Positions 4,384-9,017 of a stretch of DNA of 64,000 nt are shown one piece after another. Both the position numbers and the translations under genes were made by a program. Source of the DNA: Chryseobacterium sp. FH2 (lineage in GTDB: Bacteria; Bacteroidota; Bacteroidia; Flavobacteriales; Weeksellaceae); assembly GCF_001045455.1 (NCBI RefSeq), contig NZ_LFNE01000001.1, positions 372,001 to 436,000 on the forward strand, read 5' to 3'. The notes beneath the pieces were generated by a model. The model worked only from the letters and a program-made list of their open reading frames with translations, was not told where the DNA came from and searched no databases. Each line of letters begins with the position of its first letter. Position 1 is the first letter of the stretch.

Positions 4384-5004
4384 TTATTTTGTTGAGATTA
4401 ATTTTCCGTCTTTGTAAACCTCTGTCTTTTCTATGCTTCCATCTTCCCGGTAATGAATTCTGGTTCCGTTCCATTTATCATTTACGAATTCCGTCTCTCG
4501 TTGGATTTTTCCTGATGGATAAAGCATTCTCCATTTTCCTGTAGCTAATCCGTTGTCATAATATCCGATTTGCTTTACAGATTTACCATTTTCATAATAA
4601 AGTTTATTTTCGCCCTGCAATTTACCAAATTTAAAATTTGAAACTTCAGTTATTGTTCCGGAAGGAGAATAAAAAGTTGCAGTTAAACTATTATCATAAA
4701 TGTTTTTCTCACCATTTCTAAAGACTTCTTTTGAAGTTAAAACTCCGTTTTTATCGAAATATTGCCATTCTTTTACTTTATAATCTTTCTTGTACTCTCC
4801 TTTTGCCTGCACTTTTCCGTTATCAAAATAGAAGATGGCATTGCCTTCCAGCTTTCCATTTTTCCATTCGGCGATTTCCTTTACTTGTCCGTTTTCGTAA
4901 AATTGTTTACAACTCCCTTCCTGTAATCCGTTTTTAAATCCGCAGGGCTTTTGGGCAGATATAATGCCAAATGTGAAAGGGGCTAATAAAAGTAGATATT
5001 TCAT
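4384..5004 (-). CDS. Secreted MORN-repeat (YwqK-like) protein, copy 1
   Basis: The start was set at 5004 because MKYLLLLAPFTFGIISAQ is a clean signal peptide; in-frame codons run further upstream to 5052. The mature protein is a string of about seven MORN-variant repeats of the form YENGQ-x-K-x-x-x-x-W-x-x-G-K-L-x-G (for example YFDNGKVQAKGEYKKD and YPSGKIQRETEFVNDKWNG). Such proteins are commonly labelled YwqK-family antitoxin, but here the protein is exported and no toxin activity is shown. It is divergent from the 199-aa gene at 5150; the same pair recurs at 7.8-9.0 kb. A minus-strand -7-like box TAATTTTG lies at 5019-5026. Confidence 0.82.
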   Translation of the reverse strand: MKYLLLLAPFTFGIISAQKPCGFKNGLQEGSCKQFYENGQVKEIAEWKNGKLEGNAIFYFDNGKVQAKGEYKKDYKVKEWQYFDKNGVLTSKEVFRNGEKNIYDNSLTATFYSPSGTITEVSNFKFGKLQGENKLYYENGKSVKQIGYYDNGLATGKWRMLYPSGKIQRETEFVNDKWNGTRIHYREDGSIEKTEVYKDGKLISTK

Positions 5005-5103
5005 AGTTTCTTTTTTTTCAAAATTAATATTTGTTAGAATAATTTTATTCAATGTAGGGTGTTATAATGAAAATTTAACGTTTTTTCTACCCAAATTTGG
5101 GTA

Positions 5104-5134
5104 TTTATTCTCTTTTGTAAAATATCTATATTTG
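5104..5134 (+). promoter_or_regulatory. Promoter of the copy-1 199-aa gene
   Basis: TATATTTG at 5127-5134 matches TAnnTTTG, with a weak TTTA at 5104-5107 placed 19 bp upstream. The box and its flank (TATATTTGACTAAA) are almost identical to those before the paralogue at 8418 (TATATTTGACTTAA), so the promoter was duplicated with the gene. Confidence 0.6.
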
Positions 5135-5149
5135 ACTAAAATATAGGCT

Positions 5150-5749
5150 ATGAAAAATGTACTCGTTTTAATGACCGTAGTATCTGCTTTTACTTTTACG
5201 AAAGCACAAAATACTTATTATCCACAAGCTTTCTTCGATAAACAGCTGGCTCAGGATATGATTGGTTTTGGAAATTCAACCATTGAAGGGGTGGCTTCCA
5301 CAAAACAGAAAAATAATTGGGGAATCAAACCTTTATTAGCTGAAAAGCATTATGCTAAAAAAGGAACTGTTGTTATGCTTTTTCCGGTAACTCCTTATTT
5401 TGAAGAGTTTTATAATATGCGAAGAAAATATGAAAACAAAAAAACTACAGTATATATGTCTGAAGAGGCGTTCAAATATAGAATCGAAGCTTTAACTGAC
5501 GACCGAGGAAGATTTAAATTCGAAAAATTAAAACCCGGAAAATATTATTTAGAAACAATAATCAATTTTACGGCAACAGCAAGTTATAAACAACAAACCG
5601 GACAATCAGATGCTTATAATGCCTATGGAGGATATTTATACTCCACACCAATATATCAGACGTTTTTCTATGGCTATTCTGCCGGTAACCGCGAAAGCAA
5701 ATTTGTAGAAATAAAAAAGGATGGCGAATTGAAGGAAATCAACCTGTAA
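5150..5749 (+). CDS. Secreted 199-aa protein with carboxypeptidase-regulatory-like domain, copy 1
   Basis: A signal peptide (MKNVLVLMTVVSAFTFTKAQ) is followed by a conserved block FFDKQLAQDMIGFGNSTIEG. Residues about 60-150 resemble a small beta-sandwich of the carboxypeptidase-regulatory or Cna-B kind: VVMLFPVTPYFEEF, then TDDRGRFKFEKLKPGKYYLE, the typical G-x-F-x-F-x-x-L-x-P-G-x-Y pattern. The C-terminus has a Tyr- and aromatic-rich loop and ends FVEIKKDGELKEINL. It is about 60% identical by eye to the 199-aa product at 8418. Function is unknown; a periplasmic or surface structural role is inferred. Confidence 0.8.
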   Translation: MKNVLVLMTVVSAFTFTKAQNTYYPQAFFDKQLAQDMIGFGNSTIEGVASTKQKNNWGIKPLLAEKHYAKKGTVVMLFPVTPYFEEFYNMRRKYENKKTTVYMSEEAFKYRIEALTDDRGRFKFEKLKPGKYYLETIINFTATASYKQQTGQSDAYNAYGGYLYSTPIYQTFFYGYSAGNRESKFVEIKKDGELKEINL

Positions 5750-5759
5750 AATTTGATTC

Positions 5760-6641
5760 TTACTTTTTTAATCCCATAATTTGATGAACGCTTCTTTCAA
5801 TATTTTGGGCTAACGCTTCCATCGGAATATCATTTTCATCATTGTTGAAAGGATCTTCTATTTCTTCTGCAATAAGCTCAAGACTCATTAAAACATAATA
5901 TACAAAAACCGTCAACGGAATCATAAAAAGGCCGATAGTAATAACATAGGCAATGGGTAAAGCGAAAACGTAAAGGATAATAAACTTTTTCACAAAAGAC
6001 GAATAAGAATAGGGGATGGGAGTATTTTTAATTCTCTCACATCCTCCGCAAACGTCCAGAAAGCCGGAAAGTTGAGTATCTAAATATAGCATCTCAATTT
6101 CTGAAATTTTCCTTTCTTTTTTTAATTGGTTTAATTTGTGAGTGAGCAGAATAACGATTTCACTCGGTCCGTGATGTTTTATATGTTGCTCAATTTCAGA
6201 ATAGTCTTCATCTAAGGCGAGCCTCGTTGACTCTTTTGAAAGATGTTTTGCTAAAAAGTGAGGGAAATACTTCAAATATCTTGCAATTTGTTCTGCATCC
6301 TGTCTGTTATCCCCTAAGATGGAGTTGATTTTTATGGCAAAATTTCGGGTATCATTTACCAGTTTACCCCAAAGTTTTCTTCCTTCCCACCACCTGTCAT
6401 AAGCCGTATTTGTCCTGAAAACCAATAATAAAGAAAGTACAAATCCTAATAAAGAATGAATCATTCCCACATTACTGATACCTGATTTTGAAGTAAGGTG
6501 AAGATATTCAACCTCCAGATATTCAATCCCCCAAGAATATAACCCCACCAGAACCATGGTTGGGAAAAGGATTTTCATGGTATCGCTTTTATGTAAGCTG
6601 AAGAGGATTTTCAGGAAATGTTTAGTATTGTAGGCTCTCAT
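5760..6641 (-). CDS. Bestrophin-family (YneE/UPF0187) anion channel
   Basis: Bacterial bestrophin homologue, an inner-membrane ion channel family. The start was set at 6641 (MRAYNTKHFLKILF, matching the family N-terminus); upstream in-frame Met codons exist at 6704 and 6677. Membrane segments lie near residues 25-45 (ILFPTMVLVGLYSWGI), 60-80 (SLLGFVLSLLLVF) and 205-245. Family hallmarks are FRTNTAYDRWWEGRKLWG and, near the C-terminus, EEIEDPFNNDENDIPM, the acidic cluster that is Ca2+-binding in animal bestrophins. It ends 10 bp from the convergent 199-aa gene. Confidence 0.88.
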   Translation of the reverse strand: MRAYNTKHFLKILFSLHKSDTMKILFPTMVLVGLYSWGIEYLEVEYLHLTSKSGISNVGMIHSLLGFVLSLLLVFRTNTAYDRWWEGRKLWGKLVNDTRNFAIKINSILGDNRQDAEQIARYLKYFPHFLAKHLSKESTRLALDEDYSEIEQHIKHHGPSEIVILLTHKLNQLKKERKISEIEMLYLDTQLSGFLDVCGGCERIKNTPIPYSYSSFVKKFIILYVFALPIAYVITIGLFMIPLTVFVYYVLMSLELIAEEIEDPFNNDENDIPMEALAQNIERSVHQIMGLKK

Positions 6642-6914
6642 AAACTTTATTAGTTCCACAAAGATAAAATTTTTCATTTTGACAGACTTTAGGAAAAGCC
6701 TCAATTTATTTTAAATGCATTGGAGGGTTTAGTTTTTTTGAAAAATTCTGAGATAAAATAAACTCACGCAGGTAGGGCAAATTATACATTTTTTAGCCAG
6801 AATTTAAGATAATCTGCTAAATTCATGAAATCAGCGAAAAATGAAATTTGATTTTAAATTTTTCTGAATTTCAAAAAAACACTATTTTTATTTCGTATTA
6901 AATACCAAAACAAA

Positions 6915-7787
6915 ATGATTCTCGAAAACGTAGATGTTGTAACTGATATTAGTAAAGAAGATTTTCAGAAAAATTATTTCAAAAAGCACAAACCTCTTTT
7001 GATAAAGAATTTTGCGAGCCGTTGGGGTGCTTTCGAAAAATGGAATTTTGAGTTTATCCGCGAAAAAGCTGGTGAACAGGAAGTTCCGTTATATGATAAC
7101 AAACCTGCCGATGCGTCCAAAAGTACAGACGCGCCGGTTGCGAAAATGAAAATGAAAGATTATATCGACACAATAAAAAACAAACCTTCAGATCTTCGTA
7201 TTTTCTTTTATATCATTACAGACAGGCTTCCTGAATTGTTGAAAAATTTTACCTATCCGGATTTAGGAATGAAATTTTTTAAACGGCTTCCGACTTTGTT
7301 TTTCGGAGGGAGCGAAGCTCACGTTTTGATGCATTATGATGTAGATTTAGGAGATTTTCTCCATATTCATTTTGAAGGAAAAAAAAGGATTTTATTATTT
7401 GATCAAAAACAATCTGCGTTTTTATATAAAGTTCCTTTATCGGTTCATACAATCTATGAATTAGATTATGAAAATCCTGATTATGAAAAATTCCCTGCTT
7501 TAAAATACGCTAAGGGTTTCGAAATTTTTATGGAACATGGTGACGCGCTTTTTATTCCTGGAGCATTTTGGCACTTCAACAGATATCTTGAACCGGGATT
7601 TTCAATGTCGCTTCGTGCGCTTCCCCATAAACCTAATGTTTTCCTCAATATGCTCTATCATGTTTTTATTATGAGATATACAGATAAGCTGATGCGAAAG
7701 GTTTTTAAAGCTAAATGGGTGGATTATAAACAGAAATGGGCTTTAAAAAAAGGAAATGAGGCTGCAGAAAAATACAGTAGAATATAA
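6915..7787 (+). CDS. Cupin-like (JmjC-type) domain protein
   Basis: 290-aa probable Fe(II)/2-oxoglutarate-dependent hydroxylase of the JmjC/cupin_8 group. The core has the facial-triad pattern HYD (His140, Asp142), the strand FLHIHFEGKKRILLFD, then GDALFIPGAFWH with His220 as the third ligand. The N-terminal half begins with the family-typical FQKNYFKKHKPLLIKNFASRWGAF. The substrate (protein side chain or RNA) cannot be read. There is no signal peptide, so it is cytoplasmic. It stands alone in a 273-bp divergent region shared with the bestrophin gene. Confidence 0.85.
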   Translation: MILENVDVVTDISKEDFQKNYFKKHKPLLIKNFASRWGAFEKWNFEFIREKAGEQEVPLYDNKPADASKSTDAPVAKMKMKDYIDTIKNKPSDLRIFFYIITDRLPELLKNFTYPDLGMKFFKRLPTLFFGGSEAHVLMHYDVDLGDFLHIHFEGKKRILLFDQKQSAFLYKVPLSVHTIYELDYENPDYEKFPALKYAKGFEIFMEHGDALFIPGAFWHFNRYLEPGFSMSLRALPHKPNVFLNMLYHVFIMRYTDKLMRKVFKAKWVDYKQKWALKKGNEAAEKYSRI

Positions 7788-7824
7788 ATTTGGAAGCAGG
7801 AAAAGATTTAATAATATGCCTTAA

Positions 7825-8358
7825 TTATTTTGCAGAAATCAATTTCCCGGTTTGATAAATTTCGGTTTCTTCTAAGCTTCCGTTTTCTTTATATGAAAAC
7901 TGTTCGCCTTCTCGAAGTCCGTTCACGAAATTAGATTCATACTGCAGTTTTCCATTTTCGTAGAAGTATTTCCATTTGCCTTTCTTTTCCGTTGACAAAT
8001 TTTCCGTAACGGATAATTTTCTCATTTTTAAAATAAGTATTTTCAGATTCGTCACTATAAACATCGCCTTTCCAGCTGTTGTATGTTTCGGTGCCGGTTT
8101 TTGATCCGCTTTGGTCATAGTAAACCCATTCACCAACTTTTCGGCCTTTTTTATAAACTCCTTTTGCTTTTTCTTTTTCAAAATAAGCAATATAATTTCC
8201 GTCTAATTTTCCTTTTTTCCAATTCAGATCCCACTTTTTTTGTCCATTCTCATAGAAGAAAATGCAATTTCCTTCTTGAAGACCATCTATAAAGCCGCAT
8301 TTTTTTGAGCTTGTAAAGCAATACTCCAAAATAATAGAGCAAATAGTATTTTTTTCAT
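7825..8358 (-). pseudogene. Broken MORN-repeat protein, copy 2
   Basis: Paralogue of the gene at 4384-5004 with two frameshifts. An ATG at 8358 opens a good signal peptide (MKKILFALLFWSIALQAQ). The frame is then lost at an A7 tract near 8290-8296: one extra A would restore the expected QKKCGFIDGLQEG continuation. MORN repeats run on in the second frame to about 7985, where one extra base shifts the frame again (NGKERQ instead of an NGK-KGKWKYFYENG join). The tail ends ETEIYQTGKLISAK, matching copy 1. Both breaks sit in A-rich runs, so base-calling error is possible. Confidence 0.75.
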
Positions 8359-8363
8359 AAAAA

Positions 8364-8394
8364 GTTGTATTTAATGCCAAATATATTATATTTG
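8364..8394. promoter_or_regulatory. Back-to-back divergent promoters in a palindrome
   Basis: CAAATATATTATATTTG at 8378-8394 is a 17-bp palindrome with one central base. Its right half is a plus-strand -7 box TATATTTG (8387-8394) with TTG at 8365-8367 exactly 19 bp upstream. Its left half is the same box on the minus strand (8378-8385), about 20 bp before the MORN pseudogene start. Each polymerase would cover the other start site, so the two promoters should compete. Confidence 0.6.
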
Positions 8395-8417
8395 ACTTAA
8401 CAACAAATGTAAATCAG

Positions 8418-9017
8418 ATGAAAACAAAAATTATTTTCACACTTTTCCTGTTATCAGGAGCTTTTTCTTATGCTCAAAATAAACTTTTTCCGCAAAGCTT
8501 TTTTGATAAAAAATTAGCTCAGGAAATGCTTGCTTTCGGAACATCAACCATTGAAGGAAGAGCAGATACAAAACAAAAAAATACGTATGGTCTAAATTCC
8601 GACGCCAATGCAAAACATTATGCTCCGCAAGGAAGTGTAGTAACATTGTTTCCAATGACACCTTATTTTGAAGAATTTTTAAAATTAAGAAGGCAAAAAG
8701 AAAATAAAAAAACAATAGTATATTTATCTGAAGAGGCATTTAAATACAGACTGGAAACTAAAACAGATGAATACGGAAGATTTAAATTTGAAAAGTTAAA
8801 ACCTGGAAAATATTATATTGAATGTATGGTGGCTTTCACAGCAGTGGGAGGTTACACTCAGCAAACCGGAGTTACAACGACTTACAACGGATATGGAAAT
8901 GCAATTGCTTCGTCGCCTTATTATGAAAATTTTTTCTATAATTATGATTCAGCAAACCGCGAAACTAAAATTGTAGAAATAAAAAAAGATGGTGAATTGC
9001 TAAACATAAAATTGTAA
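8418..9017 (+). CDS. Secreted 199-aa protein with carboxypeptidase-regulatory-like domain, copy 2
   Basis: Same length and architecture as the product at 5150: a signal peptide ending FSYAQ, the block FFDKKLAQEMLAFGTSTIEG, the central VVTLFPMTPYFEEF and TDEYGRFKFEKLKPGKYYIE pattern, and an end in IVEIKKDGELLNIKL. Differences are spread along the protein and are densest in the aromatic loop before the C-terminus (residues 150-185). This copy is intact while its MORN partner is broken, so the protein may function without the partner, or with copy 1 of it. The role is unknown. Confidence 0.8.
   Translation: MKTKIIFTLFLLSGAFSYAQNKLFPQSFFDKKLAQEMLAFGTSTIEGRADTKQKNTYGLNSDANAKHYAPQGSVVTLFPMTPYFEEFLKLRRQKENKKTIVYLSEEAFKYRLETKTDEYGRFKFEKLKPGKYYIECMVAFTAVGGYTQQTGVTTTYNGYGNAIASSPYYENFFYNYDSANRETKIVEIKKDGELLNIKL

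What the first reader, a model, noticed from the sequence alone, without database searches (positions are those of the whole stretch)
4384..9017. Duplicated divergent two-gene module: secreted MORN protein plus 199-aa secreted protein
Two copies of the same unit lie 3-4 kb apart: a MORN-repeat protein on the minus strand facing a 199-aa carboxypeptidase-regulatory-like protein on the plus strand, both with signal peptides, and with the same -7 box TATATTTGACT(A/T)AA before the 199-aa gene. Conservation of the pair through duplication suggests that the two products work together. MORN proteins of this type are often labelled antitoxins, so a secreted effector and partner, or a cell-envelope structural pair, are both open. 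I know of no described function for this pair.
Basis: partly seen in the sequence, partly recalled or inferred. Interest (0 to 1): 0.6.

Follow-up and report, generated by a model that had tools for sequence, protein, structure and literature searches.

The report
Paired secreted MORN and PA1324-like proteins
Two neighbouring bacterial genes for exported proteins, one made of MORN repeats and one resembling a Pseudomonas envelope protein, stay together in some distant relatives and are fused into one protein in one of them, so they probably act together in the cell envelope, although the second copy in this genome has a dead MORN gene.

Summary
The two divergent MORN/199-aa gene pairs are real, but not as described. 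Pair 1 is intact. In pair 2 the MORN gene is a frameshifted pseudogene, and the pair is no simple local duplicate: its type also occurs alone, between a cupin gene and mutS, in two related genomes, and about 1 kb of it was recently exchanged with one of them (96-100% identity inside, mostly 77-91% outside).

The idea that the products work together holds for a subtype. MORN proteins with an N-terminal CG-x9-C motif were seen only beside the 199-aa family (or fused to it), with one unrelated-looking exception: in the genus (77 of 77), in six genomes of the Pedobacter family (another order), in one genome of another family, and in another genus of its own family. One genome encodes both as a single 298-aa protein. 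The reverse fails: most 199-aa homologues outside the genus have no MORN neighbour.

The 199-aa protein is a remote homologue of P. aeruginosa PA1324, an AlgU-controlled envelope protein (profile E 7e-10; structural Z 14.2). A toxin-antitoxin reading is disfavoured. Best explanation: an envelope protein with an accessory MORN partner, made from back-to-back promoters. Function is unproven.

The parts
4384..5004 (-). MORN1: exported (by eye) MORN_2-repeat protein, 206 aa, N-terminal CG-x9-C motif after the signal peptide
5005..5149 (.). Divergent promoter region of pair 1: TAnnTTTG boxes on both strands, 14 nt before the MORN1 ATG and 15 nt before the P199a ATG; about 90 nt longer than in most relatives
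5150..5749 (+). P199a: exported (by eye) 199-aa PA1324-like beta-sandwich protein
7825..8358 (-). MORN2: pseudogene of a shorter MORN protein of the same CG-x9-C type, broken by frameshifting deletions; an intact relative exists in G306
8359..8417 (.). Divergent promoter region of pair 2: the two TAnnTTTG boxes lie back to back, 1 nt apart
8418..9017 (+). P199b: intact second PA1324-like protein, 59% identical to P199a
7800..8900 (.). Recombination tract shared with G046: 93% in the first 100-nt bin and 96-100% in the next ten, gaps not counted, against mostly 77-91% in flanking genes

Best explanation
The pair encodes a two-part cell-envelope module. P199 is an exported, PA1324-like single-domain beta-sandwich protein and is the core part. 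MORN1 is an exported beta-strand-repeat protein of a special type (CG-x9-C) that binds P199, or works on the same target, as an accessory subunit. Both are transcribed from back-to-back sigma-A type promoters, in most relatives so close that two polymerases could hardly use them at once, which would tie their expression together. By analogy with PA1324, the likely role is envelope maintenance or stress, perhaps glycan binding at the outer membrane. Shown here: the association, the fusion, the motif, the fold and homology of P199, the promoter layout, and the asymmetry (P199 without MORN is common; MORN of this type without P199 was hardly seen; MORN2 decays while P199b stays intact). Inferred: physical binding, periplasmic or outer-membrane location, mutual exclusion at the promoter, and the envelope-stress or glycan role.
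For: (1) Of 148 sampled genus genomes, 77 have a P199a orthologue (78% identity or more) and the same 77 have MORN1, divergently adjacent in all; match ends are 54-147 nt apart in 75 and further apart in G038 and G063, whose genes are interrupted. (2) The head-to-head pair recurs elsewhere: in 6 of 28 P199-positive genomes among 251 of the Pedobacter family, next to a pnp gene in all 4 named Pedobacter loci; in G477 of another family of the order, beside an mfd-like gene; in G166, another genus of the family, between an Nramp-like gene and bestrophin; in G306 between cupin and mutS. Names pnp, mfd and Nramp are my reading of the sequences. (3) G303 encodes signal peptide + P199 + CG-x9-C MORN as one 298-aa protein, also next to pnp. 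(4) The motif is in every unbroken P199-adjacent MORN held and in the fusion, but in 1 of 26 loci with a MORN_2 gene and no P199. (5) P199 profile against PDB: PA1324 3qec E 6.6e-10, 1xpn 1.8e-9; P199a model (pLDDT 83.6) against 3qec: Foldseek E 1.5e-7, VIA Z 14.2 over 136 residues, next unrelated row 7.2. (6) PA1324 is called AlgU-regulated (passage of PMC6444534) and is listed with values 15.2 and 23.8 among genes induced when lipoprotein transport is inhibited (passage of PMC7685553). An F. nucleatum MORN/'YwqK' gene is activated by a sigma-E-dependent small RNA (passages of PMC11005410). (7) TAnnTTTG boxes on both strands in 36 of 36 distinct short divergent regions of the genus, 10 nt apart in all, and 1-4 nt apart in pair 2, G306, G166 and G477; both appear in 0.05-0.35% of plain letter shuffles of the ten short regions tested.
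Against: No binding or expression data. Within the genus the whole neighbourhood is syntenic, so adjacency there adds little. Outside the genus most P199 homologues have no MORN neighbour (2 of 15, 6 of 28 and 2 of 8 inspected genomes have one); over all loci held, 83 of 173 (redundant, some with only 1.5 kb of flank) have none. Paired P199s are not one clade (at least 4 changes, 2 forced). Corrected distance correlation of MORN1 and P199a is only 0.37, hardly above other gene pairs (up to 0.35). The full-length fusion is in 1 of 36 genomes of its genus. The three Pedobacter divergent regions tested lack exact TAnnTTTG boxes, and of 7 distinct long regions in the window's own clade only the window's has both. 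NOMO2, a long protein of repeated domains, scores better than PA1324 in the profile search (E 1.3e-11), though no single domain is significant. PA1324 fell 6-fold under copper stress (passage), so it is not a general stress marker. Glycan binding by PA1324 is recalled, plus a PDB title; the original paper is not held.
Confidence: 0.48

Rival explanations
1. Surface or adhesion pair: the MORN protein is a surface-exposed binding or adhesin-like protein and P199 a pilin- or Cna-B-like envelope domain that presents it.
For: MORN1 gives a sub-threshold hit to the Leptospira LIC20035 adhesin model (61.6 bits, cut-off 250). MORN2-domain proteins of F. nucleatum are found in outer-membrane vesicles and proposed as adhesion or invasion factors, which the same paper says is unproven (passages of PMC10434195). 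Pilin and Cna-B-type domains are among the next structural neighbours of P199 (Z 5.7-7.0).
Against: PA1324 is a far better match than any pilin (Z 14.2). No C-terminal sorting domain was listed in the Pfam/NCBIfam scans. Some unpaired homologues look like lipoproteins by eye.
Confidence: 0.2
2. No functional link: the genes are neighbours by shared history and short-range synteny only.
For: In the genus the neighbours nadK, CBS, SpoU, bestrophin, cupin and mutS are conserved too. Most P199 homologues outside the genus are unpaired. Distance correlation is not special. In G000 and G046 MORN2 has decayed while P199b stays.
Against: Same orientation and partner subtype at several different chromosomal sites across two orders, a fusion, and a motif nearly confined to partnered MORN proteins.
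Confidence: 0.17
3. Toxin and antidote (or effector and immunity) pair, with the MORN protein as YwqK-type antitoxin or as the toxin and P199 as immunity protein.
For: NCBI labels many MORN_2 proteins YwqK family antitoxins (recalled; the label appears). Loss of one partner with the other kept (MORN2 and P199b), and the many lone P199 genes, would fit orphan immunity genes.
Against: No hit in PADLOC and no toxin family in Pfam or NCBIfam. If P199 were the toxin, G046 (intact P199b, only MORN1 match broken) should not live. Both proteins look exported, unlike a cytoplasmic antitoxin. A fusion of both is unexpected. P199a is under purifying selection (dN 0.030, dS 1.2 between G000 and G075; dS near saturation).
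Confidence: 0.06

Closest known systems
PA1324 of Pseudomonas aeruginosa (PDB 3qec, 1xpn)
   Same: Same beta-sandwich fold over most of the mature protein (Z 14.2, 136 residues) and a shared stretch (LxPxTxY ... tDxxGxFxF ... GxYY); single domain
   Different: Only about 20% identity; called a lipoprotein in PMC6444534 while P199a has no lipobox by eye; no MORN partner appears in the passages read, though PA1323 is induced with it (PA1323 not examined)
MORN_2 (PF07661) proteins, including YwqK family 'antitoxins'
   Same: MORN1 is built of MORN_2 repeats (E 1.9e-24); model matches solved MORN proteins (6t69, E 1.1e-6)
   Different: Looks exported, has a CG-x9-C motif, and its partner is a PA1324-like protein and not an LXG toxin
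SdrD_B / Cna-B / CarboxypepD_reg domains
   Same: Transthyretin-like beta-sandwich core (Z about 6-7)
   Different: All Pfam hits of P199 are below the curated cut-offs; PA1324 fits much better

Membership tests
PA1324-like proteins (P199a/b) | Significant profile similarity to PA1324 | tested here: met
   hmmsearch of A1 (26 sequences) against PDB: 3qec E 6.6e-10, 1xpn E 1.8e-9
PA1324-like proteins (P199a/b) | Same fold over the domain | tested here: met
   P199a model: Foldseek E 1.5e-7; VIA Z 14.2, rmsd 2.7, 136 residues
PA1324-like proteins (P199a/b) | Envelope-stress / AlgU-type control | not testable with these tools
   only literature passages on PA1324
CarboxypepD_reg (PF13620) | Score above Pfam gathering cut-off 32.3 | tested here: not met
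   17.0 and 20.2 bits
MORN_2 (PF07661) | Score above gathering cut-off, repeated units | tested here: met
   MORN1: 83.3 bits, 5 stretches, cut-off 29.6; MORN fold in model
YwqK antitoxin (ywqJ-ywqK) | Gene next to an LXG or other polymorphic toxin | tested here: not met
   neighbours are P199, SpoU methylase and bestrophin; no PADLOC hit for the pair; ywqJ-ywqK pair from passages of PMC8321402
YwqK antitoxin (ywqJ-ywqK) | Cytoplasmic (no signal peptide) | tested here: inconclusive
   N-terminus MKYLLLLAPFTFGIISAQ looks like a signal peptide by eye; no predictor was run
LIC20035 adhesin (NF033566) | Score above NCBI cut-off 250 | tested here: not met
   61.6 bits

The most novel reading that the evidence does not exclude
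The pair is a previously undescribed envelope module of Bacteroidota in which a PA1324-like protein and its dedicated MORN partner are made in balance from a shared, mutually exclusive divergent promoter whose 26-bp core has flipped orientation, perhaps more than once, in the genus, so that the two promoter halves are exchanged between the two genes.
Probability: 0.12. Interest if true: 0.7.

Novelty: new variant of a known kind. Interest (0 to 1): 0.48.

Why it matters
MORN_2 proteins are abundant in bacteria but few have a known partner, and many carry the label 'antitoxin' (recalled). A partner suggested by recurrence in two orders, by a fusion and by a partner-linked motif gives a testable hypothesis for one exported subtype and links it to PA1324, a structurally solved but poorly understood envelope protein.

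Tried and rejected
Local duplication as explanation of pair 2: rejected, because in the genus sample (148 genomes) only G000 and G046 show P199b-type matches (58-59% identity to P199a), G046 and G306 have the cupin-mutS pair without pair 1, and the tract is recombinant. An older duplication or transfer that founded the second type is not excluded.

Mirror-tree test for co-evolution (28 loci, 20 of them with every gene used, 190 distances): not decisive.

Co-occurrence within the genus (77 both, 0 with only one orthologue) may reflect few events, since the locus is inherited as a block; I did not count independent losses.

Toxin-antitoxin reading: see rivals. Papers: I found no description of this pair in the listings of searches (open-licence PMC papers only). 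The R. anatipestifer 'carboxypeptidase regulatory-like' competence gene in PMC8459023 (passages) was not compared by sequence; nothing links it to P199. The PA1324 structure paper (Mercier 2009) was seen only as a reference and is not held.

Not done: a signal-peptide predictor, modelling of the complex, PA1323, family scans of the pnp-, mfd- and Nramp-like neighbours, and the loci of 4 of the 19 P199-positive genomes of the family outside the genus (G191, G206, G216, G251) and of 2 phylum-sample hits (G489, G728). For G217 the second-best match was inspected, not the best.

Dropped or merged rows: in the P199 tree I kept 7 of the 51 loci in the ranges L010-L034 and L055-L080, left out loci that repeat the same gene, and three fragments (L123, L157, L166) were too short. 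G038 and G063 are counted among the 77 although their genes are interrupted; in G063 other genes at the locus are interrupted too, so sequence error is likely. Of the 26 motif-control loci two overlap (L187, L199) and one (L104) is a 49-aa C-terminal fragment.
Full report
OBSERVATION. Pair 1 is intact: MORN1 (minus, 4384-5004, 206 aa) and P199a (plus, 5150-5749, 199 aa), 145 nt apart. P199b (plus, 8418-9017) is intact and 59% identical to P199a. The MORN gene of pair 2 is a pseudogene: the ATG frame stops after 23 codons, two overlapping ORFs in different frames hold the rest, and alignment with the intact relative in G306 shows frameshifting deletions plus an in-frame loss. G046 carries the same gene broken at different places, so it seems to have decayed twice. 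The own genome holds no further copies at E <= 0.01.

PAIR 2 IS NOT A SIMPLE LOCAL DUPLICATE. In the sampled genus (148 genomes) the usual site is SpoU - MORN1 / P199a - bestrophin - cupin - mutS (G003 lacks the cupin). The second site, between cupin and mutS, is occupied in G000, G046 and G306; G046 and G306 have the pair only there. Between G000 and G046 the bins from 7900 to 8899 are 96-100% identical (gaps not counted), against mostly 77-91% in the flanks (a few flank bins reach 93-96% and one intergenic stretch is lower), and P199b has dS 0.11 against 0.77-1.43 for three flanking genes. This tract ends inside P199b and looks like recent recombination between species. In G075 the cupin-mutS gap holds a transposase-like ORF (my reading of the sequence).

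THE PARTNERSHIP WITHIN THE GENUS. 77 of 148 genomes have a P199a orthologue, and the same 77 have MORN1, divergently adjacent in all 77. Match ends are 54-58 nt apart in 65 of them and up to 147 nt in the rest, except G038 and G063, whose genes are interrupted. As the whole locus is syntenic, this alone is weak.

OUTSIDE THE GENUS. The named Pedobacter loci (P. paludis, P. aquatilis, P. frigidisoli, Pedobacter sp. Leaf194) have the same head-to-head pair next to a pnp gene. In a family sample around G721, 28 of 251 genomes have P199 homologues and 6 of these the pair; four of the six give MORN scores identical to the named loci and are probably the same genomes. G477, of another family of the order, has it beside an mfd-like gene. 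G166, another genus of the family, has it between an Nramp-like gene and bestrophin. In G303 a single 298-aa ORF holds signal peptide, P199 domain and MORN domain, also next to pnp; the full-length fusion is in 1 of 36 genomes of its genus. Against this, most P199 homologues outside the genus are unpaired: of 19 P199-positive genomes of the own family I inspected 15, and only G166 and G303 have a MORN neighbour or fusion; of 10 phylum-sample hits outside the genus I inspected 8, and only G477 and G721 have it. The P199 family itself is patchy: 37 of 346 genomes of the order sample and 15 of 395 of the phylum sample.

PARTNERED MORN PROTEINS ARE A SUBTYPE. After the signal peptide they carry CG-x9-C (91 of 125 MORN ORFs held, always nine residues). 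The motif is in all unbroken P199-adjacent MORN ORFs held and in the fusion (CGRINNQMFGKC). In the main set of genus loci 69 of 74 ORFs have it, and the five without are fragments of broken genes. Of 26 loci with a MORN_2 gene and no P199 in the held flanks, one (L192, a 620-aa frame) matches the motif by pattern. Searches with the partnered-MORN profile gave 6 hits in 181 and 12 in 194 genomes of two families at E <= 1e-20; the three strongest of the first set and G477 in the second are the paired ones.

ASYMMETRY. P199 homologues without a MORN neighbour are common: 83 of 173 loci held, with redundancy and sometimes only 1.5 kb of flank, including a fusion behind DUF3108 and lipoprotein-like forms (by eye). 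The tree of 98 P199 domains needs at least 4 changes of the paired state, 2 forced by well-supported branches, so the partner was lost, or gained, more than once. Together with the decay of MORN2 beside intact P199b, this suggests P199 as core and MORN as accessory (inference).

WHAT P199 IS. Pfam hits are all below cut-off. A profile of the family finds PA1324 of P. aeruginosa in the PDB (E 6.6e-10 and 1.8e-9) and, with a better E-value, one long protein of repeated domains, NOMO2 (E 1.3e-11, no single domain significant). The AlphaFold2 model of P199a (pLDDT 83.6, eight sequences; the five models range from 48 to 84) matches PA1324 at Foldseek E 1.5e-7 and VIA Z 14.2, the next unrelated row being 7.2. 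The MORN1 model (pLDDT 82.9; the other four models 43-54) matches MORN proteins, with Rhs and OspA sheets behind. PA1324 is described as under AlgU control and 6-fold lower under copper (passages), listed among genes induced by blocked lipoprotein transport and among vesicle proteins. An F. nucleatum MORN gene is activated by a sigma-E-dependent small RNA (passages). Both halves thus point, by analogy only, to the stressed envelope.

PROMOTERS. All 36 distinct short divergent regions (54-64 nt) of the genus carry TAnnTTTG on both strands, 10 nt apart. In the five Chryseobacterium-type regions measured the boxes lie 14-15 nt before each ATG; in pair 2, G306 and G166 the boxes are 1 nt apart, in G477 4 nt (pair 2 and G306 have a second minus-strand match). 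Both boxes occur in 0.05-0.35% of 2000 plain letter shuffles of these ten short regions, and in 1.6% for window pair 1, which has an extra 90 nt between them. Of 7 distinct long regions only the window's has both boxes, and the three Pedobacter regions tested have neither. In L058 and C. shigense (L117) the 26-bp core is the exact (26/26) or near-exact (25/26) reverse complement of the usual order; a tree of five flanking genes prefers two separate flips (93% of 200 bootstrap trees), but one is not ruled out. Mutual exclusion of the two promoters is my inference.

VERDICT. A real, undescribed (in the searches named) two-gene envelope module with fair to good evidence for a functional link of this MORN subtype with P199, and none yet for its biochemical role. 

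Noticed in passing
L058 and L117, region between MORN1 and P199a: The 26-bp promoter core is inverted (26/26 and 25/26 to the reverse complement of the usual sequence), flanked by short inverted repeats by eye; a locus tree prefers two separate flips but does not exclude one.
   Followed up: partly
window 7800-8900: Recombination tract with G046, much more similar than most of the flanking genes and ending inside P199b.
   Followed up: yes
L111 (G075), cupin-mutS gap: A transposase-like open frame of 452 aa (by eye) sits in the same gap that holds pair 2 in the window, so the gap looks insertion-prone.
   Followed up: no
L093-L096, L147, L150-L156, L163-L165: Open frames of 416-479 aa with a P199 domain at the C-terminal end; in L093 the front part is DUF3108 (E 1.3e-21), the others were not scanned.
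   Followed up: partly
L035 and L104 (G092): A lone P199 gene 67-69% identical to P199a without a MORN gene, and a 49-aa C-terminal MORN fragment elsewhere in the same genome.
   Followed up: no
L119 (P. aquatilis) P199 gene: The P199 frame ends at a stop a few codons before the end that its relatives have.
   Followed up: no
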